Below are positions 26,100-51,345 of a stretch of 51,432 bases of DNA, in pieces. The notes beneath the pieces were generated by a model. That model had not been told where the DNA came from. It worked only from the letters and a program-made list of their open reading frames with translations, and did no database searches. The stretch's first letter is position 1; the number at the start of each line of letters is the position of its first letter. Origin of the DNA: Bacteroidaceae bacterium. GTDB taxonomy: Bacteria > Bacteroidota > Bacteroidia > Bacteroidales > Bacteroidaceae. The position numbers and the translations under genes are program-made. The DNA lies in contig JAFUYT010000010.1 in assembly GCA_017470425.1 (NCBI GenBank), forward strand, positions 1-51,432, given 5' to 3'.

Positions 26100-29000
26100 T
26101 CAATAGAGGCTTTGGATTTCGACGTGATGATAGTAATGCTTGAGGATCTGGTCGTAGGTGTAGCCTTGCTCGCCCATGACGGCGGCGCCGATCTGGCAGA
26201 GGCCTACGCCGTGGCCCCAGCCCTTGCCGTGGAGGATGAAACGGGCGGGGACGCCGTGGGCGTCGATGTCCTTGCGCTCCACGGTGAAGGCGGAGCTCTT
26301 CAGGTGTGTGGCGCTGAGGGCACGGCGGATCTCCAGCTCCTTGCCGATGGTGAAGGAGCGCTGGCTACCCACAATCTGCAGCTTGATGATGCGCTCACTG
26401 GGGCCGCGCTCTATGGGGATGAGGTCGATGATGTCGCCCAGGTCGTCCATCTTCAGGTGTGCAGAGATGTAGCGCTGCGCCTCGGCTTGTGTGAGCGTGA
26501 CGGTCCAGCGGTAGAAGTCGGTGGTCTCCAGGTCGTAGTCGTTGAGGACCTGTCTGATGACCTTGGGGTCGCTGGTGTTGCAGAAGGGGTCTTCGATGCT
26601 CTCGAGATAGGGGTGGTGCTTGTCCTCCCAGCAGCTCTCGAAGTTCTCCGTGTGGCCGCCGCAGCACTTTGAGAAGCGGGCATCGCACACCTCGCCCCCG
26701 CTCACGAGCACCTGCCCTGCGGTGGCTTTCACGGCAGCTTCCACCTGCGGGTTCGTCTGGCGTGTGATACCTTGATAGCGTTGGCAGTGGTCGTCGGCGC
26801 AGACGTCGAAGGTCGTGTGGGCCTCGCGGTCGGTCCATCGGATGAGCTCCGTGTCGGTCTTGGTGAAGGCAAAGAAGTCGTGGCTGCCCTGTGCCCGTGC
26901 CTGGCGCCGCTGCATCTGTGCGTAGAGCCAGCTGCGGCTGATGACGGCCGATGCTTTCAGGAACTCCATCGAGCAGTTGGGGCTCATCTCGCTGCTGATG
27001 ACGCTGCAGAGATAGTCTTCGACGGGGAGCTCGTTGATGCACAGGATCTGATCCTCCTCCACCATCAGCCGTAGCGTGCCGCGGAAGGTCTGTGCCTCGT
27101 TGCGCTCCCAGTGGAAGTTCTTGCCGATGGTGATGTCCTCGAGTGTGAAGCTCGCCTCGTCGGTCTCCGGGGTGAAGGTCAGCTGTCGATATACCTGTCC
27201 GTTCCAGAGCAGTCCACCATCGCTCAGCGACACCTCCTGCGGCCCCGTCAGCGTGGAGCCTTTGGCTGTGTAGTGGCTGTTGAGGGTGAAGCGGATGGCC
27301 GTAGCGGAGAGGAGGCCGACGGATAATGAAGACTCTCCCCCCGCCCTCCCTATAAGGGAGGGAGTGGTCACTTTTCCAGACTTGCCACGATTCTCTTTCT
27401 CAGAGGTATCTGCTCCCTCCCTTGTAGGGAGGGCGGGGGGAGAGTCCGTCACTTTCTCAATGACCTCCTTCAGCTCCTCTTCCGTCATCGTCACCTCCTG
27501 TAGGATCTCTGCCGCCCATTCGGGTGTCAGTTTCAGGTAGTCCTCCTCGCGGGGTGTGATGATGAGGCCGCCCATGTCGAGCGCGCCAGGGGAGACCATG
27601 AGAGCCCCTCTCCCCGCTCCCCCCGTGGGGGGGAGAGCCGCCAAGCCGATGTCATCTTTTCTTCCAGAGGAAAGGGAGTCCTCCCCCCCACGGGGGGAGT
27701 TAGAGAGGGGCTTATAGCAATCGGGCCGGTGCTTCTTCCTCGGGAAGATCAGGGTGATGATTTCATCGCTACGGCTCTCGTCGCCAGCCTCGCGCCAGCA
27801 GATGATATTCATGCGCGGCTCGGCCTCGTCGCCGTGGATGGGCAGGGCGCGGTAGAGGCGCTGGCAGAGCAGGCTGTCCGTCTCCTCGGGCAGTGAACGG
27901 ATGACGAAGACGGGGCAGACGTAGTTCTTCAGCAGGAACAGTCCGCAGCGTGCGCTGTCGTTGCCCGCGTCCTCCATCTGCTGTGTCTCGTTCTCGGTCA
28001 GTGGATAGAGCTTCTGGAGCTGCGTCTCGTACATCTTCCAGTCGCGCTCGATGGGCACAATGCCGCGTGAGCCAGCCTGTAGGTGCATGTGGTCGGGGCA
28101 GGAGGCTCCGCACATGGGGCCGTTATAGAACACGATGTGGCTGGGCATCGACCATGCCAACTGGCGCAGCGTCGTGAAGTGCTCCCAGATGCTCTGCGGC
28201 TTGTGGCGGCGCGTAGGAATCGTGAAGTGGCGCGGCAGGATAGGGTAGGGATTGACCAGCACCTGGTAATGATGGCGGATCATCAGCGCGTGCTGTTCTG
28301 GTGGGCGGTTTTCGTCGCAGAGGAAGCAGGGGCGTGCCTCGATGCTCGCCTTGTCAATCTTCGCAGCGGTCGAGACGATGCGCGCCGGGTTCCACTGCAC
28401 GGTCAGCGTCCCCTCCCAGTCGGCTGCCAGCTCGCGTTGCTGCACATTGGCCTCGAGTGCGTCGTAGTTGCGCTGTGCCAACTCCCACTGTGCCAGCTCC
28501 TTGTCGAAGAAGCGCAGGACATCTTCCTCGCTTGCCTCCTGGCGCCATGTGGCGTTCAGCGCCTGGCGTGCCCGGATCTCCGTCGTGCGCAGCTGGTCCT
28601 TGTAGAGGTTGTTCTTGTTGACCTTCTCCACAGAGAGCGCAGCGTCGCTGTTGCCCTCCCATCGCCGGCAGAGATAGAGCTCGTCGAAGATGCGCCCGAT
28701 GCGGTAGCGGCGCCCGATCATCAGGCCCAGGGCGTAGTCCTCGCCGTAGCTGGTGTTGGGAATCTGTATCTTGCGCAGCACAGGCGTATAGAAGGCTCTT
28801 GGGGCGCCCAATCCGTTGATGCGCAGCGCGTTGTTACGCCCGTTCTGGGGCGTCCATTCGCGGTGGTCGATGAGTCCCGGCGGCAGGGTATTCAGCTGGA
28901 AATCCGTCATGCGGTAAGAACCAATCACCATCGCAGCCTTCTGTTCGCGGAAGGCATCCACGATGCGCTGCAGCGTGTCCTCGCCGCTGTAGAGGTCGTC

Positions 29001-30047
29001 GGAGTCGAGCTGCACCACGAAGCGGCCGCACTGCGGATGATGCACAGCCAGGTTCCAGCAGCCGCCGATGCCCAGGTCGTCGCGGGAGGGCATGAGGTGA
29101 ATCAATTCACAATTCATAATGCATAATTCACAATTGGCTGTGCTTTGGTGTTTATTATCAGGCTCTGCGCCAGCTTCATTATGAATTATGAATTGTGAAT
29201 TGTGAATTAAGCCGTCTATGACGGCCGTAGTCCCGTCCGTGCTGTGGTTATCCACCACGATGAGGTTGAACGGGAACGTCGTCTTCTGGCGTAGTACGCT
29301 GCGGATGGCATCCTCGATGGTGCGGACGCGGTTGCGGACGGGGATTACGACCGTTGCCTCGACGGGGAACTCCTCGTCGTCGAACTTGATCTCGTCGAAC
29401 TCGTCGGGAGCCAGCAGCGCGCCGATGGCTTTCAGATGTCGCGTACACGCGCGTTCCATTTCTATCTGTCGGCGCCGGTTGCGCGGATCGACATAGTCGA
29501 ACTGCTTCTGTCCCGAGAGGCGGGTGTCCGTCTCGATCTCCGTGTAGAGCGTTTCGGAGACGTGCACGGGCAGCTGTCGGCGTGAGAGGAACAGGCGGAG
29601 GTCATACAGCCCGGCAAACTCATATTCGCGCACGCGCTCCTGAGCGAAATACTCCTTCACGTCGGCCGTCCGCATCAGCGTCAGCGAGCCGAAGGCGAAG
29701 TCATCGCGCACGCTACCCAGCTGGTAATCAATCAGCGGGTGCGCCTCTACGGTGCCGTCGGGCAGCTGGATGCGGTGGTCGGCATAGACCATTGTGGCGC
29801 CCGTGTCCTCGGCGATGGTCACGAGGCGCGTGAGGGCGTAGTACCCCAGCTGCAGTTCAAACTGCTTGGTGTAGAGCAGGATATAGGGTGCGTCGGCCTC
29901 GGCAGCCATTTGTCGCAGCGAACTCGTCTGGAATGGATTCTCGATACCGTGCACGCTGCTGATATTTTCGTCGTGGCGGAGGATTTCGAGCGTGTGAACC
30001 CCGTTTTGAGTGTCAATTAGGGGCAGGAAACAACAGATTTTGGGCAT
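26100..30047 (-). CDS. Three-part fusion: family 2 glycosyltransferase, DUF4922 nucleotidyltransferase-like, SpoIID/LytB domain
   Basis: This 1315-residue protein has no signal peptide. The GT2 domain (about 232-480) has '[20 protein letters not shown]' and '[12 protein letters not shown]', an extended DXD-type motif. DUF4922 (about 535-770) has '[18 protein letters not shown]' and '[11 protein letters not shown]'. Its HxHxQ motif is like the HIT/GalT/Ap4A-phosphorylase nucleotidyltransferases. The C-terminal SpoIID domain (about 920-1315) has '[16 protein letters not shown]', '[15 protein letters not shown]' and '[20 protein letters not shown]'. Joining sugar transfer, nucleotide chemistry and a wall-acting domain is unusual, and the cell location of the last is unclear. 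Three palindromic elements are read through in frame: D within GT2 (279-314), and C (778-815) and B (867-905) in the linker before SpoIID. A -7 element lies at 30078-30085. GH92 follows after 1 base. Confidence 0.85.
27331..27446. repeat. Palindromic inverted-pair element B
   Basis: Left unit begins GACTCTCCCCCCGCCCTCCC, then TATAAGGGAGGGAGTG (27331-27366). Right unit (27413-27446) is its reverse complement and ends in GGGGGGAGAGTC. Each unit also folds on itself (CCCTCCCT / AGGGAGGG). The 46-base spacer is unrelated. Read in frame in the SpoIID fusion gene, giving the peptide [15 protein letters not shown]. Confidence 0.85.
27603..27712. repeat. Palindromic inverted-pair element C
   Basis: AGCCCCTCT at 27603 and AGAGGGGCT ending at 27712 are the outer ends. 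Internal palindromes CTCCCCCCGTGGGGGGGAG (left) and CTCCCCCCCACGGGGGGAG (right) flank a spacer of about 40 bases. In frame in the same gene as element B, 155 bases away from it. Confidence 0.8.
29104..29210. repeat. AT-rich inverted repeat pair D inside the glycosyltransferase domain
   Basis: Left arm (29104-29135) is made of AATTCACAATTCATAAT units. Right arm (29177-29210) is the reverse complement made of ATTATGAATTGTGAATT units. The spacer is about 40 bases. The same unit forms the tandem array at 49203-49316. It is translated as [10 protein letters not shown] and [10 protein letters not shown] around residues 279-314, within the GT2 domain between the 'DGTTAVIDG' and '[11 protein letters not shown]' segments. 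Confidence 0.8.
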
Positions 30048-37413: not shown

Positions 37414-38652
37414 ATGATTCAGACAGAGCCACAGATAGAACCACAGACAGCACCGCAGGCCGTTCCGCAGGCTGCAGCGCAGAAGACACCCCTCCTCGGC
37501 ATGACGCCCGAGGAACTGAAGGGCGTGGCCGCAGAGGTGGGGATGCCCGCGTATGCTGCCAAGCAGATGGCGCAGTGGCTCTATCAGAAGGGCGTCGCGA
37601 GCATCGACGAGATGACGAACCTGAGCAAGCCGGCCCGCGAACGACTCTCCGAGCGCTACGAGATCGGGCGGATGGCGCCGCTGGCCGAGCAGCACAGCAA
37701 GGACGGCACCGCCAAGTACCTGTTCCCGACGCGCGAGGGTGGGAGAGTGGAGACCGTCTTCATCCCCGACGATGACCGCGGCACCATCTGCGTCAGCTGT
37801 CAGGTGGGCTGCAAGATGGCGTGCCGCTTCTGCGCCACCGGTCAGCAGGGCTTCCAGGGCCAGCTCTCCACCGCAGACATCCTCAACCAGATCTACAGCC
37901 TCCCCGAGCGCGACCGACTGACGAACATCGTGTTCATGGGTCAGGGCGAGCCGATGGACAACCTCGACGCCGTGCTGCGCACCACGCAGCTCCTGATGGC
38001 CGACTACGGCTGGGCGTGGAGCCCGCGGCGCATCACCGTCTCCACCGTGGGGCTGCGCAAGGGTCTGAAGCGCTTCCTCGACGAGAGCCCCTGCCACCTC
38101 GCCATCAGCCTCCACAACCCCTTCCCCGAGGAGCGCGCGGCCATCATCCCTGCCGAGCGCAGCTACAGCCTCACAGAGATGCTCGACCTCCTGCGCCAAT
38201 ACGATTGGACAGGCCAGCGCCGCCTCTCCTTCGAATACACCGTCTTCGGAGGCTTGAACGACTCCAACCGCCACGCCCGCGAGCTGGTGCGGCTGTTGCA
38301 GGGGCTCGAGTGCCGCGTGAATATGATACGGTGGCATAGGATAGCCCCCCTCCCGGCCTCCCCGATGGGAGGAGATGGGGCGAGCGGTAGGCAAGAGGAA
38401 ACGCAAGTCCCCCCTCGGGGGGATTTAGAGGGGGGCTTGTCCTTCCATGAGGCGAATGAGACGCGCATGGCCGCCTTCCGCGACTACCTCACGCACCGCG
38501 GCATCCGCTGCACCATCCGTGCGTCCCGCGGACAGGATATTGATGCGGCGTGCGGGTTGCTGAATACAAAGACCCCCCGCTCGGCCCAACGGGACGCTCG
38601 ACCCTTCGAGAACCCCTCCCGTGGGGAAGGGAGTATATACTTTACAAGATAG
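37414..38652 (+). CDS. rlmN: 23S rRNA (adenine-2503-C2) methyltransferase RlmN, carrying repeat inserts
   Basis: RlmN is a radical-SAM enzyme that methylates A2503 of 23S rRNA. The radical-SAM cluster motif is 'CKMACRFC' (about 134-141), with 'MGQGEPMDN' and 'SPRRITVSTVGL' behind it, and the C-terminal 'TIRASRGQDIDAACGLLNTK', whose Cys is the methyl-carrying residue. Two repeat elements change it. Element E adds about 32 residues (310-341) between 'RVNMIRWHRI' and 'HEANETRMAAFRDYL', where relatives have a short loop. Element F-G replaces the end after LLNTK with a 26-residue tail rich in Arg and Pro. The core is intact, so activity is plausible. An N-terminal Gln/Pro/Ala stretch (1-26) precedes the normal start 'LLGMTPEELK'. 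Confidence 0.95.
   Translation: MIQTEPQIEPQTAPQAVPQAAAQKTPLLGMTPEELKGVAAEVGMPAYAAKQMAQWLYQKGVASIDEMTNLSKPARERLSERYEIGRMAPLAEQHSKDGTAKYLFPTREGGRVETVFIPDDDRGTICVSCQVGCKMACRFCATGQQGFQGQLSTADILNQIYSLPERDRLTNIVFMGQGEPMDNLDAVLRTTQLLMADYGWAWSPRRITVSTVGLRKGLKRFLDESPCHLAISLHNPFPEERAAIIPAERSYSLTEMLDLLRQYDWTGQRRLSFEYTVFGGLNDSNRHARELVRLLQGLECRVNMIRWHRIAPLPASPMGGDGASGRQEETQVPPRGDLEGGLSFHEANETRMAAFRDYLTHRGIRCTIRASRGQDIDAACGLLNTKTPRSAQRDARPFENPSRGEGSIYFTR
38343..38437. repeat. Palindromic inverted-pair element E, inside rlmN
   Basis: AGCCCCCCTC at 38343 and GAGGGGGGCT ending at 38437 are the complementary outer ends. Inner stems are CTCCCCGATGGGAGG (left) and CCCCCCTCGGGGGG (right). The spacer is about 30 bases. 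Read in frame. Confidence 0.8.
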
Positions 38653-38754
38653 GTAAACGAAGAACGTCATATGCAATCACTCAAATCATTATATAGAATC
38701 TGCCTCGCAAAGGTGACCACTCCCTCCCTTATAGGGAGGGCGGGGGGAGAGTCT
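38570..38754. repeat. Palindromic inverted-pair element F-G spanning the rlmN end and DUF4837 start
   Basis: The left end is AGACCCCCCGC, followed by a GCTCGGCCCAACGGGACGCT block shared with element H. The right unit (38713-38754) contains the stem CCCTCCCT-TAT-AGGGAGGG and ends GGGGGGAGAGTCT. The left unit supplies the rlmN C-terminal codons and stop. The right unit lies in the DUF4837 signal sequence. Confidence 0.75.
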
Positions 38755-39849
38755 GTTCTTTTTCTTGTTGCTCTTTTCTTTCTTTCCTCTTGCAAGAAGG
38801 AAATGGTCATTCCCCGCGCCAGCGGACGTCCCTATGAGGTGATGGTGGTGATGAGCGACCAGGCATGGCAGGCCAAGGAGGGCCGCGCGCTGTTCACGGT
38901 CCTCGACACCGACATCCCCGGTCTGCCGCAGCCCGAGCGCTCGTTCCATATCTCGCAGGTCGATCCGAAGCGCTTCGACCAGATCCTGAACATCTTCCGC
39001 AACATCATCATCGTAGATATCAACTCGCAAATCTACACGAAGACGTCGATGAAGTTCACGCGCGACAAGTACGCCATCGACCAGATCGTGCTGACCATCC
39101 AGAGCCCCTCGGCCAATGAGTTTGCCGACTTCTGCTTCGACCACGGGCAGGACATCATCGACTTCCTCACGAAGATGGAGATGAACCGTCTCATCAAGGA
39201 ACTCAAGGACAAGTACTCCAAGAAGACCGCCGAGCTGGCCAAGGAGATCTTCGACTGCGAGCTCCACGCCCCCGACGAGATCAAGAGCTACAAGCGGGGC
39301 GAGAACTTCTTCTGGACAAGTTCCAACGGCGCCTCGGCGCTGGTGAACATCTGCATGTACAGCTACCCCTACGAAGGTCCCCAGACCTTCAACAAGCAAT
39401 ACGTCCTGGCCAAGCGCGACAGCGTGATGGCCGTGAACATCCCCGGCACGCTGCCCTCGATGCACATGGCCACCGATACGCTCTGCACCTCGGTCAAGCC
39501 CATCGTCGTCCACAACCAGTACGCCCTCGAGGCGCGCGGCCTCTGGTACATGGAGAACGACGGCATGGGCGGTCCCTTCGTCAGCCACTCCCGCGTGGAT
39601 ACGACCCGCAACCTCGTCATCGTCGTCGAGGGCTTCGTCTTCGCGCCGGAGAAGATGAAGCGCGGCCTCATGCGCCGCCTCGAAGGCTCCCTCTACACCC
39701 TCAACCTGCCCGACGAGCAGACATCGCCCATCGTGACCACGATGGAGGAGGTGGCCGTCACGGCGGAGGACAGGAGGGAAATGCGAGAAAAGACCCACTC
39801 CCCGCTCGGCCCAACGGGACGCTCGACCCTTCGAGAACCCCTCCCGTGA
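38671..39849 (+). CDS. DUF4837 family lipoprotein with repeat-derived ends
   Basis: This 392-residue protein belongs to DUF4837, a Bacteroidetes lipoprotein family of unknown role. Characteristic text is 'RPYEVMVVMSDQAWQAKEGR', 'QILNIFRNIIIVDIN' and 'EGFVFAPEKMKRGLMRRLEG'. The signal is odd: MQSLKSLYRICLAK, then 14 residues from repeat F-G ([14 protein letters not shown]), then the hydrophobic core VLFLVALFFLSSC with lipobox cysteine 41. A GTG in frame at 38713 could be an alternative start. The C-terminus also runs into element H, adding 'EKTHSPLGPTGRSTLREPLP'. Genes before (rlmN) and after (pdxA) are in the same direction. The two repeat-bearing ends could reduce export, although the core is unbroken. 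Confidence 0.85.
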   Translation: MQSLKSLYRICLAKVTTPSLIGRAGGESVLFLVALFFLSSCKKEMVIPRASGRPYEVMVVMSDQAWQAKEGRALFTVLDTDIPGLPQPERSFHISQVDPKRFDQILNIFRNIIIVDINSQIYTKTSMKFTRDKYAIDQIVLTIQSPSANEFADFCFDHGQDIIDFLTKMEMNRLIKELKDKYSKKTAELAKEIFDCELHAPDEIKSYKRGENFFWTSSNGASALVNICMYSYPYEGPQTFNKQYVLAKRDSVMAVNIPGTLPSMHMATDTLCTSVKPIVVHNQYALEARGLWYMENDGMGGPFVSHSRVDTTRNLVIVVEGFVFAPEKMKRGLMRRLEGSLYTLNLPDEQTSPIVTTMEEVAVTAEDRREMREKTHSPLGPTGRSTLREPLP

Positions 39850-40012
39850 GGGAGGGGAGTGCCTGCGGGATGTGGGCATATCGGATGAGAGAAAGGAGGC
39901 GGTAAACAATTTAAGAAATGTTAGATAAGAAATAACCTATAGCAATGTCCCCGCAATAACTTCTAAGCGCCAGCCGCTCCCCTCCCTTACGGGAGGGGTT
40001 GGGGGTGGGTCT
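39791..40012. repeat. Palindromic inverted-pair element H, between DUF4837 and pdxA
   Basis: The left unit starts AGACCCACTCCCC and contains the GCTCGGCCCAACGGGACGCT block plus CCCCTCCCGTGAGGGAGGGG. The right unit (39967-40012) is 42 of 46 identical to the right end of the DUF559 element. About 110 bases of AT-rich spacer lie between. The DUF4837 stop lies in the left unit. Confidence 0.8.
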
Positions 40013-44043: not shown

Positions 44044-46461
44044 ATGCTCAGCAGTATCCGCAGAACTGCCTTGACATTTGTCTTGGCCATGATAGCGCTG
44101 ACCTCGCAGGCCAGCGCTTTCGTTTTACCGGCACAGCGGCCGGTCACCCTGTCGGTCGCCGACAAGGAGAAGGCGGTCGTGCACACGGCCGTGGGCATCC
44201 TGCAGGGAGACCTCCAGCGGGTTCTCGCCGCGGAGGTGAAGCACACGCCCTCCAAGGCGCAGATCATCGTGGGCACGTGGCGCGGCGAGGGACGTCAGCT
44301 CCTGGCCGCCACGGGGCTCGACTTCTCGTGGCTCGAGGACCAGGCGCAGGCGTTCATCCTTCAGGTGACACCCGACGGGCGCCTCGTCATCGCGGGCAGC
44401 GACGTCTATGGCACCGCCTACGGCGTCATGGAGCTCTCGCGACAGCTCGGCGTCTCGCCGTGGGAGTGGTGGGCCGATGCCGAGCCCGAGGCGCGGAGCG
44501 AGTTCCGCCTCGCCGACGACTACGTCACCCGCCAGGCACCCGGCGTCGCCTTCCGCGGTATCTTCGTCAACGATGAGGACTGGGGACTGATGCCGTGGTC
44601 GGCCACCAACTATGAACCCGCCTCCCGCGGGCAGGTGGGCCCCAAGACCACACAGCGTATCTTCGAGCTCCTGCTCCGCCTGCGCGCCAACCTCTACTGG
44701 CCACCCATGCACGAGTGCACCCATCCCTTCTTCCTCACCGAGGGCTGCGCGGAGCTGGCTGCGAAGTACGGTATCTTCATCGGCACCAGCCACTGCGAGC
44801 CGATGGGCTGCAACGCCGCCGGTGAGTGGGGCGTCCGCGGCAAGGGCGACTACAACTGGGACACCAACCGCACGGAGGTGCTCCGCTTCTGGGAGCAGCG
44901 TGTGAAGGAGGCTGCCCGCGTGCCGCAGATCTACACGCTCGGGATGCGGGGACTCCACGACGGCGCCATGCAGGGCATCCACACCCTCGACGCCCACAAG
45001 AAGGCGCTCACCGAGATCTTCCAGGCGCAGCGCGACCTCCTGGCAAAGTACGTCACGCCGCAGGTCACCCGTCTGCCGCAGGTCTTCATCCCCTACAAGG
45101 AAGTGCAGGAGGCCTACGATGCCGGCTTGCAGGTGCCCGATGATGTCACCCTCGTCTGGTGCGACGACAACTACGGCTACATCCGCCATTTCCCCACCGA
45201 CGCCGAGCAGCGCCGCAGTGGCGGCAACGGCATCTACTACCACGCCTCCTACTGGGGCCGTCCCCACGACTACCTATGGCTGGGCACGGCGAGCCCCTTC
45301 CTGATGTTCCAGCAGCTCTATGAAGCCTACTACCACGGTGCCTCGCGCCTGTGGGTGCTCAACGTCGGCGACATCAAGCCGCTCGAATACCAGATTGCCC
45401 TCTTCATGGATATGGCGTGGGATGTGGAGCGTGTGCGGCAGACGACCGTCGCCACCCACCTCGAGGAGTTCTGCGCCGAGAACATCGGGCGCGACGTGGC
45501 CCGCCTCTCGTCCATCTACCTGAAGGAACACTACCACCTCGCCTTCCAGTGCAAGCCCGAGCACCTCGCTGGCACGCGTGTGGAGGAGCCCAAGGGAGGT
45601 GATATAGACTGGTCGCATGTGCGCGACCTCCCGTGGAGCGAGCAGAAGATCCGCCACCGCCTCGGGCGCTACGACAAGCTGCAGCGCAATGTGCGCTGGA
45701 TTGCCGACTCCGTGCGCCGCACGCATCCCCGCCGCTACGATGCCTTCTACCAGCTCGTCGAATACCCTATCCTGGCGGCCGCCGCGCAGAACGAGAAGTA
45801 TCTCTGTGCGCAGCTCGCCCGCCACGGCCTCACCTATCTCTCGCGTGACAACGTGGATTCCACGTGGATGCGCAGCGACATGGCTCATAACCGCGTGCAG
45901 GAGCTCACCGTCCGCTACAACGAGCAGCGCGACGGCAAGTGGCGTGGCATCATGAGTTCCAACCCGCGCAACCTGCCGGTCTTCCAGCCCGTGCCCCATG
46001 AGCAGCACACCGAACCGCTGCCCGTCGAGGAGCCTGCTGTGGCCACCTTCTACGGCGCCAGCTACGATGCCGCCACCTTCGCCGGTGGGGAGATCCTGGC
46101 ACCTGTCCTGGGCCTCGGCGCCAGCATCCGTGCCATCCCCCTGCCGCAGGGGCACAGCCTGACGTACAACTTCAAGCATAACTTCCTTCGCCAGCGCTTC
46201 TCCGTGATAGAGATCCACTTGCTGCCCACGCATCCCATCGATGCGCAGCAGCGCTTCACCGTCTCCCTCGACGGCTCCGCGCCCCTCACCTACACCTACA
46301 ACACCGAGGGACGCAGCGAGGAGTGGAAGCAGAACGTGCTCCGCGGCTATGCCGTCGTCATGGCACGGCCGCAGGTCTTCAAGCCCACTGGTGAACATTC
46401 CCTCGTCATCACCGCCCTCGACGACGGTGTGGTCATTGATGAGGTGATTGTCAGGAAGTAA
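44044..46461 (+). CDS. GH115 family alpha-glucuronidase
   Basis: GH115 enzymes remove (4-O-methyl-)glucuronic acid from xylan side chains. This 805-residue protein has a signal peptide ('MLSSIRRTALTFVLAMIALT', then SQASA). The N-terminal carbohydrate-binding region contains 'GSDVYGTAYGVMELSRQLGV'. The catalytic TIM-barrel has 'FRGIFVNDEDWGLMPW', 'YWPPMHECTHPFFL', 'IGTSHCEPMGCNAAGEW' and 'YTLGMRGLHDGAM', all typical. A C-terminal beta-sandwich ends the protein. It is placed between secG and ffh, 9 and 36 bases from them, an unusual location for a polysaccharide enzyme. Length is at the short end of the family. Confidence 0.9.
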   Translation: MLSSIRRTALTFVLAMIALTSQASAFVLPAQRPVTLSVADKEKAVVHTAVGILQGDLQRVLAAEVKHTPSKAQIIVGTWRGEGRQLLAATGLDFSWLEDQAQAFILQVTPDGRLVIAGSDVYGTAYGVMELSRQLGVSPWEWWADAEPEARSEFRLADDYVTRQAPGVAFRGIFVNDEDWGLMPWSATNYEPASRGQVGPKTTQRIFELLLRLRANLYWPPMHECTHPFFLTEGCAELAAKYGIFIGTSHCEPMGCNAAGEWGVRGKGDYNWDTNRTEVLRFWEQRVKEAARVPQIYTLGMRGLHDGAMQGIHTLDAHKKALTEIFQAQRDLLAKYVTPQVTRLPQVFIPYKEVQEAYDAGLQVPDDVTLVWCDDNYGYIRHFPTDAEQRRSGGNGIYYHASYWGRPHDYLWLGTASPFLMFQQLYEAYYHGASRLWVLNVGDIKPLEYQIALFMDMAWDVERVRQTTVATHLEEFCAENIGRDVARLSSIYLKEHYHLAFQCKPEHLAGTRVEEPKGGDIDWSHVRDLPWSEQKIRHRLGRYDKLQRNVRWIADSVRRTHPRRYDAFYQLVEYPILAAAAQNEKYLCAQLARHGLTYLSRDNVDSTWMRSDMAHNRVQELTVRYNEQRDGKWRGIMSSNPRNLPVFQPVPHEQHTEPLPVEEPAVATFYGASYDAATFAGGEILAPVLGLGASIRAIPLPQGHSLTYNFKHNFLRQRFSVIEIHLLPTHPIDAQQRFTVSLDGSAPLTYTYNTEGRSEEWKQNVLRGYAVVMARPQVFKPTGEHSLVITALDDGVVIDEVIVRK

Positions 46462-46497
46462 ATCGAAACAACGAAATAACGCCAACTCAATAAGAAA

Positions 46498-47823
46498 ATG
46501 TTCGAAAATCTATCTGAACGCCTGGAACGCTCCTTCAAGATCCTGAAGGGCGAAGGCAAAATCACAGAAATCAATGTCGCCGAGACACTGAAGGATGTGC
46601 GCCGCGCACTCCTCGATGCCGACGTGAACTATAAGGTGGCCAAGTCGTTCACCGACACGGTCAAGCAGAAAGCCCTCGGGCAGAACGTCCTTACAGCCGT
46701 GAAGCCGCAGCAGATGATGGTGAAGATCGTCCACGACGAACTCGCCCTCCTCATGGGCGGCGAGACGGCGGAGCTCAACCTGAAGAGCCATCCCGCCGTC
46801 ATCCTCATGGCAGGTCTCAATGGTGCGGGTAAGACCACCTTCGCTGGCAAGCTCGCCAATATGCTCAAGAGCAAGCGGAGCCGTAACCCCTTACTCGCTG
46901 CCTGCGACGTCTATCGTCCGGCTGCTGTCGAGCAGCTCCGTGTGCTCGGCGAGCAGATCGGTGTGCCCGTGTATATGGAACTGGACAACCAGGATCCCGT
47001 GAAGATCGCGCAGAACGCCATCATCGAGGCGCGCTCGAAGGGCTACGACACCGTCATCGTCGATACCGCCGGTCGTCTGGCCATCGACGAGAAGCTGATG
47101 CAGGAGATTGCGGCCATCAAGGCTGCCATCAACCCCGACGAGACGCTCTTCGTGGTCGATGCCATGACGGGTCAGGATGCCGTGAACACCGCCAAGGAGT
47201 TCAACGACCGCCTCGACTACACGGGCGTCGTACTCACCAAGCTCGACGGTGACACCCGTGGTGGTGCCGCCCTCTCCATCCGCACCGTCGTGGATAAGCC
47301 CATCAAGTTCGTGGGCACAGGCGAGAAGATGGAAGCCATCGACCCGTTCCACCCCGCACGTATGGCCGACCGCATCCTCGGCATGGGCGACATCGTCAGC
47401 CTCGTAGAGCGTGCCCAGGAGCAGTACGATGAGGAGGAGGCACGTCGCCTGGAGAAGAAGATCCGCAAGAACCAGTTCGACTTCAACGACTTCTACGCCC
47501 AGATCCAGCAGATCAAGAAGATGGGTAACATCAAGGACCTCGCCTCGATGATTCCCGGTGTGGGCAAGGCCCTGAAGGATGTTGATATCGACGACAACGC
47601 CTTCAAGAGCATCGAGGCCATCATCCTCTCCATGACTCCCAAGGAGCGCACCCACCCCGAATGTCTCAACACCAGCCGCCGCCGTCGCATCGCCGTCGGC
47701 TCCGGCACCGACATCGCCGCCGTCAACCGCCTCATCAAGCAGTTCGACCAGACCCGCAAGATGATGAAGATGGTCACCGACCCCAAGATGGCCGCCATGA
47801 TGGCAAAGATGCCGAGGAGATAA
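46498..47823 (+). CDS. ffh: Signal recognition particle protein Ffh
   Basis: Ffh with 4.5S RNA delivers ribosomes making membrane proteins to the Sec/YidC system. Motifs: G1 'GLNGAGKTTFAGKLA' (about 106-120), 'ACDVYRPAAVEQLRVLGEQI', 'VDTAGRLAIDE' and 'TKLDGDTRGGAAL'. The methionine-rich M domain follows, with 'KMGNIKDLASMIPGVGK' and the C-terminal 'MMKMVTDPKMAAMMAKMPRR'. The 441-residue length is normal. The stop codon lies at the very edge of the DUF559 element, which begins within TAAAGACCC. Ffh itself is complete. Confidence 0.97.
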   Translation: MFENLSERLERSFKILKGEGKITEINVAETLKDVRRALLDADVNYKVAKSFTDTVKQKALGQNVLTAVKPQQMMVKIVHDELALLMGGETAELNLKSHPAVILMAGLNGAGKTTFAGKLANMLKSKRSRNPLLAACDVYRPAAVEQLRVLGEQIGVPVYMELDNQDPVKIAQNAIIEARSKGYDTVIVDTAGRLAIDEKLMQEIAAIKAAINPDETLFVVDAMTGQDAVNTAKEFNDRLDYTGVVLTKLDGDTRGGAALSIRTVVDKPIKFVGTGEKMEAIDPFHPARMADRILGMGDIVSLVERAQEQYDEEEARRLEKKIRKNQFDFNDFYAQIQQIKKMGNIKDLASMIPGVGKALKDVDIDDNAFKSIEAIILSMTPKERTHPECLNTSRRRRIAVGSGTDIAAVNRLIKQFDQTRKMMKMVTDPKMAAMMAKMPRR

Positions 47824-47870
47824 AGACCCACCCCCGACCCCTCCCGTGAGGGAGGGGAGGGGCTGGCGCG
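47822..47870. repeat. Left inverted end of element J
   Basis: Starts AAAGACCCACCCCCGACC at the ffh stop codon, continues through the palindrome CCCCTCCCGTGAGGGAGGGG and ends GGCTGGCGCG. It can also act as a stem after ffh. Confidence 0.85.
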
Positions 47871-47897
47871 ATGTGTGGAAATTGATAGATTAATAGA

Positions 47898-48269
47898 ATG
47901 AACGACGAACTGAAGTGGGCCGCTAGCGATCGATATCCTTTATTAAAGGATTATGCTCGCAAGAACAGGATGAATCCAACGGATGCAGAGCTGTTGTTGT
48001 GGCGGCAACTAAGAGATCGGGCATTGGGAACGAAGTTCTTTCGACAATATATCATAGCTGACTACATCGTTGATTTTGTCTCTCTGGAATATATGTTGAT
48101 CATCGAAGTAGATGGTGCTTATCATTCTGAACTTGAGCAAAAAGAGAATGGTGAAGGGCGTTCTACTCGTTTGAAGAGTCTTGGCTTCAAAGTGATCCGA
48201 ATTTCCAATGAGGAAGTATGTAATTCAATAGAACAAGTAATAGAAACCATAAAACTCCATCTTTTATGA
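47898..48269 (+). CDS. DUF559 Vsr-like endonuclease-fold protein
   Basis: The 123-residue protein has '[20 protein letters not shown]', then '[20 protein letters not shown]' and '[10 protein letters not shown]', followed by '[19 protein letters not shown]'. The D...ExD pattern and Arg in the last part match the PD-(D/E)XK-like DUF559 family, relatives of very-short-patch-repair nucleases. A catalytic role in moving the element is an inference. The codons are AT-rich (by eye near 42 percent GC) against the GC-rich ffh and folD, which suggests a foreign origin. Its TGA stop (48267-48269) overlaps the folD ATG (48266), so the two may be translationally coupled. Start at 47898 is 27 bases after the left repeat. 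Confidence 0.85.
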
Positions 48270-49204
48270 GTACAAATAGTGATACTACGCGCCAGCCTCT
48301 CCCCTCCCTCACGGGAGGGGCCGGGGGTGGGTCTTTTATCGACGGAAAAGCGACGGCGGCGGCTATCAAGGCTGAGATTGCCGAGGAAGTGAAGAAGATT
48401 GTAGCGGCAGGCGGCAAGCGGCCTCATCTCGCCGCCATCCTCGTGGGCCACGACGGTGGCTCCGAGACCTATGTAAGTAATAAGGTACGCGCGTGCGAGG
48501 AGTGTGGCTTCCAGAGCACACTCATCCGCTTCGAGGACGACATCACCGAGGAGGAGCTCCTGTCCTGTGTGTCGCGGTTGAATCGCGACGACAGCGTCGA
48601 TGGCTTCATCGTGCAGCTGCCCCTGCCGCGTCACATCGACGAGCAGAAGGTCATCGAGGCCATTGACTACCGCAAGGATGTCGATGGCTTCCATCCCATC
48701 AATGTCGGGCGCATGGCCATCGGCCTGCCCGCCTTCGTCAGTGCCACGCCCAAGGGCATCCTGGAGCTCCTGCGCCGCTACGGCGTGGAGACCAGCGGCA
48801 AGAAGTGCGTCATCCTGGGCCGCTCCAACATCGTAGGCAAGCCCATGTCGCAGCTGATGATGCAGAAGGGCGTCGATGCCACCGTCACCGTCTGCCACTC
48901 CCGCTCGAAGACCTTGAAGGAGGAGTGCCTGCAGGCCGACATCATCATCGCTGCCATCGGACAGCCCGCCTTCCTGAAAGGCGATATGGTGAAGCCCGGC
49001 GTGGTGGTCATCGACGTGGGCACCACCCGCGTGCCCGATGCCTCGCGCAAGAGCGGCTTCCGCCTCCAGGGCGATGTCGATTTCGATTCCGTCGCGCCTC
49101 TCGCTTCCAAGATCACGCCCGTGCCCGGTGGGGTAGGGCCCATGACCATCTGTATGCTGATGCAGAACACGCTTGCGGCGGGCAAGAAGGAATACTATGA
49201 TTAA
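48266..49204 (+). CDS. folD: Methylenetetrahydrofolate dehydrogenase/cyclohydrolase FolD
   Basis: FolD converts 5,10-methylene-THF to 10-formyl-THF (one-carbon pathway). Conserved text: '[20 protein letters not shown]' with the 'YVSNK' active lysine, '[20 protein letters not shown]', '[14 protein letters not shown]', the NADP motif '[13 protein letters not shown]' and '[19 protein letters not shown]'. The first 23 residues ([20 protein letters not shown] and on to GGS) are not FolD-like and come from the right end of element J. Normal homology begins at [12 protein letters not shown]. The length of 312 is about 20 more than usual. The ATG overlaps the DUF559 stop. An array of AT-rich repeats follows the stop. 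Confidence 0.95.
48288..48336. repeat. Right inverted end of element J, inside the folD coding sequence
   Basis: Begins CGCGCCAGCCTCTCCCCTCC, holds the stem CCCTCCC...GGGAGGG and ends GGGGGTGGGTCTTT. It is codons 8-23 of folD and encodes [11 protein letters not shown], similar to [11 protein letters not shown] from elements B and F-G. Confidence 0.85.
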
Positions 49205-49316
49205 TTCATAATTCACAATTCATAATTCACAATTCATAATTCACAATTCATAATTCATAATTCACAATTCATAATTCACAATTCATAAATCATAAGTCAT
49301 AATTCATAATTCATAG
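49203..49316. repeat. AATTCATAATTCAC tandem array after folD
   Basis: About eight units of AATTCA[TC]AATTCA directly follow the folD stop and degrade into AATCATAAGTCATAATTC. The unit is the same as the arms of element D (29104-29210). There is no ORF in it. It is best read as an intergenic simple repeat that expanded by slippage. Confidence 0.85.
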
Positions 49317-49354
49317 TCGATTATAGGGCGCAAATGAAAATAATCTTGTAAAAG

Positions 49355-49386
49355 TTTGGTGGTTTCGTCGGAAACCACTACCTTTG
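49355..49386 (+). promoter_or_regulatory. Promoter of the tRNA-His gene
   Basis: TTTG at 49355-49358, 20 bases, TACCTTTG at 49379-49386: a full Bacteroidetes match. tRNA begins 42 bases later. Confidence 0.75.
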
Positions 49387-49428
49387 CACCCGCAAAAGCC
49401 GATAAGGCCAGAGCATCTTTCCAACATG

Positions 49429-49502
49429 GTGCCTATAGTTCAGTTGGTTAGAGCGTCAGATTGTGGTTCTGAATGTCGTCGGTTCGAGTCCGACTAGGCA
49501 CC
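49429..49502 (+). tRNA. tRNA-His (anticodon GTG)
   Basis: Acceptor stem GTGCCTA pairs with TAGGCAC. The D-arm is TAGTTCAGTTGGTTAGAGC and the T-arm GTCGGTTCGAGTCCGAC. The seven-base anticodon loop TTGTGGT places GTG at positions 34-36, so histidine. The base before position 1 is G and the discriminator is C, as expected for the G-1:C73 pair of tRNA-His. CCA is not encoded (the bases after the discriminator are CAA). Confidence 0.95.
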
Positions 49503-49511
49503 CAACGAGAG

Positions 49512-49549
49512 CATCCCCTGCAATACCTTGCAGGGGGATGTTTCGTTTG
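49512..49549 (+). terminator. Terminator of the tRNA-His gene
   Basis: CATCCCCTGCAA, loop, TTGCAGGGGGATG (one extra G), then TTTCGTTTG. The strong stem begins 9 bases after the tRNA. Confidence 0.8.
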
Positions 49550-49634
49550 TGCTGGTGAGAACAAGGTTGTTACAATCTTGCTTCTTTCACATCTTTTAAC
49601 GCTCTTAATGAACCGCTGAAAACGATTTTCTTCT

Positions 49635-49642
49635 TATCTTTG
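49635..49642 (+). promoter_or_regulatory. Promoter -7 element of the DUF3868/DUF3575 gene
   Basis: TATCTTTG, an exact match, 27 bases before the GTG start at 49669. No TTTG at -33. Confidence 0.5.
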
Positions 49643-49668
49643 CAGTCGAAAAGTGCAAGTGAACTGAT

Positions 49669-51345
49669 GTGAATCACGTTAGAACTTTGATTTTAACCCT
49701 TTTGCTAATCTTCTCTGCAGCCTCTTCTGCAGAGGATTCGGTGTCTGTGGACAACGTGAGATTAGTACATGCCTCGGACAGTGTCCAGTTGCGGATGACC
49801 CTCCGCCTCTCGGATTTGACCGTAGGCAAACGTGATGTGTGGTTACTTGTACCCCGCCTCGTCAACGGCGCCGACAGCATCGAGATGCCCTCCGTGGGCA
49901 TCTACGGTCGCATACCTTATTATTATGCTGTGCGGTCCGGTTTGCACCTCTATCAGGACGAGTGCGATATCATGCTACGCGCCAAGGAAGTCCGCGGCCG
50001 CAAGGGCGCCGCTTTTTCTTACGCGCGTACACTGCGTCATCGCGCGTGGCTCGAGGGCGCGGAGGTGAAGCTCTTCCTCACCCATATCGCCTGCTGCGGC
50101 GACGTGATGGACTCCCGTTCGTGGCGCGTGCTGGAGACGCGTTTGGTGCAGCTGCCGGACAGCATCGTCTATCGCCGCTTCACAAAGGAGGCCCACGGTA
50201 CGGCCCACGTGGATTTCGTGCTTGACAGCATCTGGATCGATCCCGCCTACCACGACAACCGCCATGAGCTCGGCAAGATCAGCCGCCTGCTCGACTCCCT
50301 GCAGGCCGATCCCCGTATCCATATCGACTCCGTCACCTTCCACGGCTACGCCTCGCCGGAAGGTCCTTATCGCCACAACGTATGGCTGGCCAAGAACCGT
50401 GTGAAGGCGCTGGCCGACTACATCATCGAGAAGCACCGCCTCGACCCAGCCATCGTCAGCCAGCAATACACGCCGGAGGACTGGGTAGGCCTGCGCCGCT
50501 ATGTCGAGGCCTCGTCGCTGCCGCACCGCGCGGAGATCCTGGCCGTCATCGACGACACCGTCAGGCGTCCCGACCCCGACGTGCGGCTGCGCTATATCCG
50601 CCGCACCTACGTGGAGGACTTCGCCGACATCTTCGACAACAGCCTCCCCTTCCTGCGCCACACCGACTACACCATCCTCTACACCACCGACGGCACGCGC
50701 GAGGAGCGCATCCCCGGCCGCATCGTGCCCCGCATAGAGGAGGATGTGCTGGTGCCCGATACGCCCTTCCACACGATACCGCCCCTGCCACCCCTGTTTG
50801 CCGTGAAAACCAACCTGCTGCTCGATGCCATCGCGTGGCCGAATGTAGAGGTGGAGGTGCCCTTCGGCAAGAATGCCCAGTGGAGCTTGATGGCGGAGTG
50901 GGGTAGCCCCTGGTATGTCTGGCACCACAACTCCCGTGCCTACGAGATCCTGAACGTGGGTCTCGAGCTGCGCCGCTGGTTGGGCAAGTGCCCCGACTGC
51001 CGTCCCGTGCTGACGGGCGGCTTCGTGGGGCTCTATGCCGCTGTCGGCAAGTACGACATCGAATGGAACTCCATCGGCGACCAGGGCGAATACCTCAGCT
51101 TCGGCGCTTCCGCGGGCTACAGCTGGCTGCTGCGCAAGTGTCTGAACCTGGAGGTCTCCGGCTCCCTCGGCGTCCTCTTCGGCCCCCAGCGCCACTACCA
51201 CGGCGAGTTCAGCGACACCCACCTCATCTGGAAGAGCTTCGACGACCTCTTCTACGTGGGCCCCACGCAGCTCAAGGTCTCCATCGTATGGCTCATCCCG
51301 CGGAAGTGGTTCGGGCTGGATAAGAAGAAAGGAGGTGAGCAATGA
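49669..51345 (+). CDS. DUF3868/DUF3575 outer-membrane protein with an OmpA-like middle domain
   Basis: Translation appears to start at GTG 49669 ('MNHVRTLILTLLLIFSAASS' signal). The ATG at 49667 is in another frame. The 558-residue product has an N-terminal beta region (about 30-160, DUF3868-like), an OmpA-like region (about 180-300, 'VTFHGYASPEGPYRHNVWLA' then 'NRVKALADYII') and a C-terminal DUF3575 barrel (about 375-550, 'FAVKTNLLLDAIAWPNVEVE', 'GFVGLYAAVGKYDIEWNS'). In Bacteroidales these proteins are often encoded beside fimbrial (type V pilus) genes, so a role in pilus assembly or anchoring is possible. Such genes may lie beyond the window. The stop overlaps the next ATG. Confidence 0.85.
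   Translation: MNHVRTLILTLLLIFSAASSAEDSVSVDNVRLVHASDSVQLRMTLRLSDLTVGKRDVWLLVPRLVNGADSIEMPSVGIYGRIPYYYAVRSGLHLYQDECDIMLRAKEVRGRKGAAFSYARTLRHRAWLEGAEVKLFLTHIACCGDVMDSRSWRVLETRLVQLPDSIVYRRFTKEAHGTAHVDFVLDSIWIDPAYHDNRHELGKISRLLDSLQADPRIHIDSVTFHGYASPEGPYRHNVWLAKNRVKALADYIIEKHRLDPAIVSQQYTPEDWVGLRRYVEASSLPHRAEILAVIDDTVRRPDPDVRLRYIRRTYVEDFADIFDNSLPFLRHTDYTILYTTDGTREERIPGRIVPRIEEDVLVPDTPFHTIPPLPPLFAVKTNLLLDAIAWPNVEVEVPFGKNAQWSLMAEWGSPWYVWHHNSRAYEILNVGLELRRWLGKCPDCRPVLTGGFVGLYAAVGKYDIEWNSIGDQGEYLSFGASAGYSWLLRKCLNLEVSGSLGVLFGPQRHYHGEFSDTHLIWKSFDDLFYVGPTQLKVSIVWLIPRKWFGLDKKKGGEQ

What the first reader, a model, noticed from the sequence alone, without database searches (positions are those of the whole stretch)
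47822..48336. A DUF559 nuclease gene framed by near-perfect 49-base inverted palindromes, inserted between ffh and folD
Seen: the ends match as reverse complements at 47 of 49 positions, each end has its own stem-loop, and the enclosed 123-residue gene is AT-rich in a GC-rich neighbourhood. The left end begins in the ffh stop codon and the right end is inside folD. Known: DUF559 is Vsr-like and PD-(D/E)XK-type nucleases are used by homing elements. Inferred: this is a self-moving element and the source of the shorter pairs nearby.
Basis: partly seen in the sequence, partly recalled or inferred. Interest (0 to 1): 0.9.

Follow-up and report, generated by a model that had tools for sequence, protein, structure and literature searches.

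The report
Mobile nuclease gene that lends start codons
In a rumen bacterium a small gene for a DNA-cutting enzyme sits between two matching hairpin repeats, and comparison with its relatives indicates that this whole unit moves around genomes, settling at the very start of ordinary genes and lending them a new start signal so that they can still be read.

Summary
A 49-nt inverted pair (47/49) encloses a 123-aa DUF559 gene between ffh and folD. All five DUF559 genes found in this MAG are framed by such pairs, as are 60 of 74 genus loci at my threshold. The unit behaves as a mobile element. Two copies in one genome (89%, 489 nt) sit at two sites, and homology ends at the outer repeat ends. One clade occupies at least seven gene starts. 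The ffh-folD and fmt junctions include empty alleles. Palindrome number rises with DUF559 number (Spearman 0.64), and none of 23 tyrosine-transposase loci has these palindromes as its flanking pair.
New here: the right end carries a start codon, in 17 of 67 loci ATGA overlapping the DUF559 stop. It is read through the palindrome in frame into the downstream gene (29 of 38 loci, against 4 and 1 in the other frames), giving folD, fmt, argB, fucP and others a borrowed N-terminus.
Most likely this is a nuclease-encoding, palindrome-ended selfish element that hands ribosomes to the next gene. The nuclease's role in movement is inferred.

The parts
47822..47870 (+). left terminal palindrome (arm of the inverted pair)
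   Evidence: 47/49 reverse-complementary to 48288-48336; own hairpin
47898..48269 (+). DUF559 PD-(D/E)XK / Vsr-like nuclease gene, 123 aa
   Evidence: PF04480 E 7.9e-29; AF2 pLDDT 82.9; Foldseek best 3hrl and I-Bth0305I 3r3p
48266..48337 (+). element-borne start (ATG overlapping the DUF559 stop as ATGA) and leader [24 protein letters not shown] read through the right palindrome into folD
   Evidence: ORF 48266-49204, translation; in-frame leader recurrent at other sites
48288..48336 (+). right terminal palindrome, read as part of the leader
46498..47823 (+). ffh, upstream host gene; its stop codon abuts the left end
48266..49204 (+). folD, downstream host gene, with element-derived N-terminus
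   Evidence: PF00763/PF02882; in element-free G018 folD begins ATGACTATT-ATTGAC
38605..38760 (+). DUF559-less palindromes (approximate limits) between rlmN and a DUF4837 gene, whose N-terminus is again leader-like ([15 protein letters not shown])
39830..40012 (+). DUF559-less palindrome pair (approximate limits) between the DUF4837 gene and pdxA
27330..27447 (.). DUF559-less palindrome pair, read in frame inside a long minus-strand ORF (26100-30047)

Best explanation
The 515-nt stretch is one copy of a mobile element. Its only gene is a small DUF559 (Vsr/EDxHD-like) nuclease, and its ends are a matched pair of GC-rich palindromes. SHOWN by sequence comparison: the unit has sharp boundaries at the outer palindrome ends; closely related copies occupy unrelated sites; empty and internally deleted alleles exist; the nuclease gene is under purifying selection; and in this genus most copies lie between codirectional genes, at the start of the downstream one, with an element-borne ATG whose frame runs through the right palindrome into that gene. 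INFERRED: the element has no promoter of its own and is read on the host transcript; ribosomes end DUF559 at TGA, restart at the overlapping ATG and continue into the host gene, so an insertion on a start codon is nearly neutral; the nuclease drives spread by nicking or cutting at the palindrome ends and/or the target, with host repair copying the element in; loss of the nuclease gene leaves short palindrome pairs and single palindromes.
For: Framing: 5 of 5 own-genome DUF559 genes; 60 of 74 genus loci at IR score >=16. Against that, 1 of 66 shifted controls and 35 of 490 mismatched flank pairs; at >=25 it is 42 of 74 against 10 of 490. Mobility: L264 and L265 in one genome, 89% over 489 nt, homology ending within 1 nt of the IR ends. 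In 49 of 51 different-site rows the right edge of homology lies 0-8 nt from the element end. Full copies lie at uxaB-like, fucP, argB, fmt and cimA-like starts, left-diverged ones at amidohydrolase and thioesterase starts. A supported 15-row clade (96/97) spans these sites. Empty alleles: ffh-TAA-TATGACTATT-ATTGAC in G018; TAA T ATG at fmt in G018, G539, G524. Deleted derivatives at one site: L316, L325. Dose: Spearman 0.636 over 101 genomes, median 45.5 palindromes with and 5 without DUF559. Frame: 29/4/1 of 38 loci, 21/3/1 of 27 distinct downstream genes. Orientation: downstream gene codirectional in 68 of 78, upstream in 64 of 82 (genus loci plus nine close relatives). dN/dS median 0.064 in the 14 of 91 pairs with usable dS<2. 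Nuclease fold.
Against: No movement was observed, and no cleavage site is known. No target-site duplication was found: 0 nt in 7 and 1 nt in 1 of 8 copies. G018 has 139 palindromes and no DUF559 detected, though that MAG is 80% complete. The dose correlation is not corrected for kinship. Loss of the native fmt start is only a tendency: ATG at that codon in 1 of 8 element-bearing loci but also only in 10 of 15 element-free ones (Fisher p 0.027). One matched palindrome pair in the own genome spans 2.8 kb with a phosphoglucomutase-like ORF, probably two elements. In the L039 (Proteobacteria) phylum sample only 17 of the 32 loci examined reach the IR threshold, and the gene-start placement is absent: codirectional 16 of 31 upstream and 13 of 29 downstream. 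A DUF559 protein in Caulobacter is argued to be a Vsr repair enzyme (PMC12907096, passages only).
Confidence: 0.72

Rival explanations
1. The palindromes are the mobile thing, moved by another enzyme such as a REP-associated tyrosine transposase (RAYT/TIRYT), and DUF559 is a frequent passenger.
For: Most of the 68 hairpins found in 436 kb of the own genome have no DUF559 beside them. G018 has 139 and no DUF559. Di Nocera 2013 (PMC3733652, passages) gives GGGGWSAS for repeats flanking some tyrosine transposases in other species, which fits the outer CTCACCCC motif here. Some arms (L001, L002) have GTAG at the inner foot.
Against: No Y1_Tnp match in the own genome. Of 16 strong Y1_Tnp loci in the genus 13 have matched inverted repeats of other sequence; none of 23 inspected has these palindromes as its flanking pair, though three (L215, L221, L223) hold a loosely matching palindrome elsewhere in the locus. 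Palindrome number follows DUF559 number. Matched pairs with a 400-540 nt interior contained DUF559 in 3 of 3 cases. DUF559 is under strong purifying selection.
Confidence: 0.17
2. DUF559 is a resident Vsr-type repair gene, and the palindromes are terminators or mRNA hairpins around it.
For: DUF559/VsrA repair role argued in Caulobacter (PMC12907096, passages); Vsr-like fold.
Against: Unit at many unrelated sites with sharp edges; several copies per genome, up to 8; occupied and empty alleles; no terminator-like site found in 47500-48700; arms are pair-specific and read in frame.
Confidence: 0.04
3. An element spread only by allelic homing and lateral exchange between the same junctions, as for free-standing homing endonucleases, not by transposition to new sites.
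For: Nearest characterised relative is homing endonuclease I-Bth0305I. Some junctions (fmt, argB, gmk-like, leuC-like, folD) are occupied in several genomes.
Against: The same clade occupies at least seven unrelated starts, two of them in one genome. One start can hold different clades: fmt, thioesterase, folD.
Confidence: 0.2
4. Concerning placement only, and compatible with the best explanation: the in-frame start position is survivorship; insertion is random and selection keeps the harmless ones.
For: Compatible with all placement data; the other palindromes in the window also sit at or near gene edges, except the pair inside the ORF 26100-30047.
Against: Different clades land on the same few codons of the same genes, which hints at a preferred target but does not prove one.
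Confidence: 0.5

Closest known systems
REPtrons / RAYT transposases with REP and REPIN repeats
   Same: One small gene framed by inverted palindromes, many solitary or paired copies of the palindromes, short non-autonomous pairs
   Different: Enzyme is a PD-(D/E)XK DUF559 nuclease, not an HUH tyrosine transposase; in this genus the Y1_Tnp genes inspected have other hairpins
EDxHD homing endonucleases (I-Bth0305I) and Vsr
   Same: Catalytic fold: PDB 3r3p E 0.0053 by sequence, rank 2 in Foldseek; 1vsr rank 10. A DUF559 gene has been assigned to the EDxHD family in Thermosynechococcus (PMC9403480, passages)
   Different: Single domain of about 120 aa, no intron or intein seen, ends are palindromes, many unrelated sites
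Rickettsia palindromic elements (RPE)
   Same: Palindromic elements translated in frame as part of host proteins (PMC10969869, passages)
   Different: Those passages describe ~150-bp RPEs encoding a conserved peptide inserted within ORFs and mention no nuclease; here the element carries a nuclease gene and supplies the start
CGTC-tagged REPs lacking a dedicated transposase (Di Nocera 2013)
   Same: Abundant palindromes, often as inverted dimers, without a tyrosine transposase beside them
   Different: Different sequence; no CGTC tag seen in the arms here
MITEs
   Same: Short inverted-repeat derivatives without a gene
   Different: Parent has no known transposase class; no target-site duplication seen

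Membership tests
RAYT/REPtron | Encodes an HUH Y1 tyrosine transposase (PF01797) | tested here: not met
   The element encodes only DUF559; no PF01797 match in the own genome
RAYT/REPtron | Gene framed by inverted palindromes that also occur dispersed | tested here: met
RAYT/REPtron | Palindrome tagged GTAG (or CGTC) at one foot | tested here: inconclusive
   The window arms have neither tag; some other arms (L001, L002, L061) have GTAG at the inner foot
Homing endonuclease gene | Homing-endonuclease-type catalytic fold | tested here: met
   3r3p in sequence and fold searches; PADLOC HEase profile E 5.7e-5
Homing endonuclease gene | Cuts the element-less allele at one cognate site | not testable with these tools
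   needs biochemistry
Homing endonuclease gene | Confined to one homing site per subfamily | tested here: not met
   One clade at seven or more starts
Group I or II intron | Self-splicing RNA around the ORF | tested here: not met
   In 46400-49700 only a tRNA reached its Rfam gathering score
DDE-type insertion sequence or its MITE | Target-site duplication | tested here: not met
   0-1 nt in 8 copies
Rickettsia palindromic element | Palindromic element in frame with a host ORF | tested here: met
Rickettsia palindromic element | RPE family sequence | not tested
   no RPE sequence was fetched
DUF559 (PF04480) | Profile score above cut-off | tested here: met
   100.2 bits against 20.6

The most novel reading that the evidence does not exclude
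A class of mobile element not described in the papers searched, whose only protein is a stand-alone DUF559 nuclease acting on its own palindromic ends, and which targets translation starts and carries a portable start codon and leader so that insertions are translationally silent. Across phyla, DUF559 nucleases would be the missing enzyme behind many CT/GA-type palindrome families that lack a transposase.
Probability: 0.35. Interest if true: 0.92.

Novelty: new variant of a known kind. Interest (0 to 1): 0.82.

Why it matters
It gives a widespread protein of unknown function, DUF559, a concrete biology to test, and it offers an enzyme for abundant palindromic repeats that have no transposase. 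It also shows a way for selfish DNA to live between genes that cells need: lend the next gene a start codon. It predicts that many core proteins (FolD, Fmt, ArgB, ArgG, Gmk, LeuC and others, recognised here by my reading of the sequence) carry short palindrome-coded N-terminal tails in some of these bacteria, which proteomics can check directly. It also warns annotators about start sites.

Tried and rejected
A first pattern with the wrong spacer length undercounted the palindromes and was replaced. Rfam gave no structured RNA over the element at gathering scores. PADLOC gave only weak nuclease profiles. The terminator scan was empty and its one promoter-like site is at chance level. The tyrosine-transposase rival was tested. 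Target-site duplication was looked for and not found. Generalising the gene-start placement beyond this genus failed in the Proteobacteria-side sample.

Weak points of my own tests. In one search the coordinates of contig-edge loci (L044, L045, L052, L065, L066) were mis-set; supersede it. The 74 genus loci include one exact duplicate (L262/L263) and orthologous insertions. The orientation rule mislabelled the window's own left arm, so its pair-orientation counts are not used here. The cargo scan missed the DUF559 pair of L002, whose palindrome is of another type. One search kept 38 of 83 loci (74 genus plus nine close relatives), those with IR >=16 and a clear codirectional downstream ORF; the looser one search had 43 of 47 downstream frames open through the right arm, an easier test. 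Script errors; one search ignored minus-strand loci; one search is the corrected run.

Literature: ten searches, listings only; none listed a DUF559 mobile element of this kind, but subscription journals are mostly not held. Passages only were read in PMC10969869, PMC12907096, PMC9403480 and PMC3943268; in PMC3733652 the outline, passages, part 1 of the Results and the CGTC section. The I-Bth0305I paper (PMC3239194) is not held and is cited only through those papers.

On recheck I softened the claim that the native start is 'usually' replaced, and added the element-free fmt loci without ATG, the GTAG feet, the three Y1 loci with a stray palindrome and the 2.8-kb pair.
Full report
1. What is there. 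The arms 47822-47870 and 48288-48336 are reverse complements at 47 of 49 positions. They enclose a 123-aa gene that scores 100 bits against DUF559. The gene is 40% GC between ffh (60%) and folD (62%). Each arm is itself a hairpin with an 8-bp CCCCTCCC/GGGAGGGG stem, and outer bases (CCA.CCCC in the left arm) pair with inner ones (GGGG.TGG). The left arm begins in the ffh stop codon. The folD frame opens at an ATG at 48266, overlapping the DUF559 stop as ATGA, and runs through the right arm into [11 protein letters not shown].

2. Not one curiosity. The MAG (2.4 Mb, 72% complete) has five detected DUF559 genes, and all five are framed by inverted pairs that match within the pair and differ between pairs. 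In the genus 68 of 101 genomes have DUF559. Of 74 genus loci examined, 60 have a flanking inverted repeat at score >=16. Controls reached that in 1 of 66 shifted positions and 35 of 490 pairs of flanks mixed between genomes; at >=25 the figures are 42 of 74 against 10 of 490. A second set of 66 shifted positions had 3 at >=13, the highest 22. Palindromes of the type CCTCCCN2-9GGGAGG number 210 in this genome against 2 for the reversed pattern. Across 101 genomes they rise with DUF559 number (Spearman 0.636; median 45.5 with, 5 without, not corrected for kinship). G018 is an outlier with 139 palindromes and no DUF559 found.

3. It moves. An all-against-all comparison found two copies in genome G094, on the same contig about 4.6 kb apart, 89% identical over 489 nt, with homology ending within 1 nt of the outer palindrome ends. 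A search with one copy in 139 genus genomes hit 27, some only in part. Full-length copies lie at uxaB-like, fucP, argB, fmt and cimA-like genes, and copies with a diverged left part at amidohydrolase and thioesterase genes (gene names are my reading of the sequence). Of 51 different-site rows, 49 have the right edge of homology 0-8 nt from the element end; one row is 14 nt and one is a match between host genes. The left edge lies 0-8 nt outside the end where the left part is conserved, inside the element where it is diverged, and further out (up to 46 nt) in three rows with L310, whose left end I extrapolated. A tree places these copies in a clade of 15 rows (support 96/97), while other clades occupy the same fmt, thioesterase and folD starts. 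With few columns (106) many forks are open.

4. Empty and decayed alleles. Of 90 ffh-folD junctions fetched, 86 were readable (one without a folD hit, three without ffh upstream). Three hold DUF559: G000 and G041 (the genome of L030) share the insertion, and G059 has another. Six hold a palindrome pair without DUF559, in gaps of 155-168 nt (G099, G088, G048, G076, G061, G079). By my reading about eight hold single or worn palindromes, and I saw none in the rest; in G018 only 10 nt lie between the ffh stop and the conserved IDGK. L031 and L035 also share the window insertion. At fmt I read the 30 best-scoring of the loci listed for 137 genomes with a match; 26 were readable: five with DUF559 (G077, G043, G016, G518, G010), three with palindromes but no DUF559 (G541, G019, G525), three with left-end remnants (G075, G003, G530), six with the genes 1-5 nt apart (G523, G539, G018, G524, G041, G510), and nine with longer gaps without them. 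L316 and L325 are internally deleted forms at the amidohydrolase site.

5. The portable start. Among the 74 genus loci plus nine close relatives the upstream gene is codirectional in 64 of 82 and the downstream gene in 68 of 78. For 38 loci with a clear codirectional downstream gene, a leader (an ATG near the end of DUF559, or the DUF559 frame itself) runs open through the right palindrome into the gene frame in 29; the other two frames do so in 4 and 1. By distinct downstream gene it is 21, 3 and 1 of 27 (binomial p about 3e-7 for 21 of 25 against 1/3, treating genes as independent). In 17 of 67 loci the start overlaps the DUF559 stop exactly as ATGA. Not every copy does this: L002 leaves the next gene its own ATG. 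The leader is conserved within a clade (for example MNTSSQNHSAPSLTGRAGGES) and fused to different host proteins. At fmt the codon at the native start is TTG, CTC, CTC and CTA in four of five DUF559-occupied loci and ATG in G043. ATG stands there in 1 of 8 element-bearing and 10 of 15 element-free loci (p 0.027), so loss of the native start is a tendency, not a rule.

6. The enzyme. PDB sequence search gives 3hrl (E 5.6e-13) and the homing endonuclease I-Bth0305I, 3r3p (E 0.0053). The AlphaFold2 model (pLDDT 82.9) matches the same two best, and Vsr 1vsr at rank 10. D59, E70, D72, H76 and R88 are invariant in 29 sequences. dN/dS is 0.064 (median of the 14 of 91 pairs with usable dS<2). No tyrosine transposase was found in the own genome. 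In the genus, 40 of 101 genomes match PF01797, many weakly. Of 23 loci inspected, the 16 strong ones have matched inverted repeats of other sequence in 13 cases; none of the 23 has the DUF559 palindromes as its flanking pair, and three hold a loosely matching palindrome elsewhere. In 436 kb of the own genome 11 matched pairs were found: three with a 407-528 nt interior, each holding DUF559; seven with 44-112 nt and no ORF of 60 aa; and one spanning 2.8 kb with a phosphoglucomutase-like ORF.

7. How far it reaches. In 398 genomes of the phylum of G101 (the genome of L039, titled Proteobacteria) 145 have DUF559. Of 32 loci examined (the best-scoring ones and others of G101), 17 have flanking inverted repeats at >=16, with the highest of 62 shifted controls at 15; 10 of the 17 contain CCTCTCCC or GGGAGAGG. 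There the neighbours are codirectional in only about half (16 of 31, 13 of 29). So the framing seems general, while the gene-start placement is a feature of this genus as far as tested.

8. Mechanism. Shown: unit, boundaries, sites, decay, frame. Inferred: expression from the host transcript, ribosome restart, nuclease-driven spread. No target-site duplication was seen, which argues against a classical cut-and-paste transposase. The insertion could be a repair-mediated copy at nuclease breaks, or a single-strand route through the hairpins; the data do not decide. Whether start codons are targeted or merely tolerated is open.

9. Place among known things. It works like a REPtron with a different enzyme, and like Rickettsia palindromic elements in being translated in host proteins; it lacks the transposase that defines the first, and RPE sequence membership was not tested. 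Ten literature searches listed no DUF559 mobile element of this kind.

Noticed in passing
window 26100-30047 (minus): One 1315-aa ORF seems to join a glycosyltransferase-like, a second and a SpoIID-like part through in-frame palindromes ([14 protein letters not shown]); a second palindrome pair lies at 27617-27699. Part names are my reading of the sequence.
   Followed up: partly
window 38605-38760 and 39830-40012: Two more palindrome sites flank a DUF4837 gene; its N-terminus contains the leader-like [15 protein letters not shown] and its C-terminus reads into the next palindrome.
   Followed up: partly
window 49203-49310: AT-rich tandem repeat (AATTCATAATTCACAATTCATAA) between folD and a tRNA; similar TTCATAGTT-type repeats fill ffh-folD gaps in several relatives.
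   Followed up: no
L210-L225: Tyrosine-transposase genes in the genus mostly have their own matched hairpins (TAGCCGCGGG..., GTAGCCAGCC...), so two palindrome systems coexist in some genomes.
   Followed up: partly
G018: 139 palindromes but no DUF559 and no Y1_Tnp match: either the MAG lacks the copy or the enzyme was lost after spread.
   Followed up: no
PDB 3hrl: Best solved relative is annotated as a Neisseria gonorrhoeae protein; Di Nocera 2013 says Neisseriae carry CGTC-type palindromes (dRS3) and that CGTC repeats lack a dedicated transposase. Whether its gene is framed by them was not checked.
   Followed up: no
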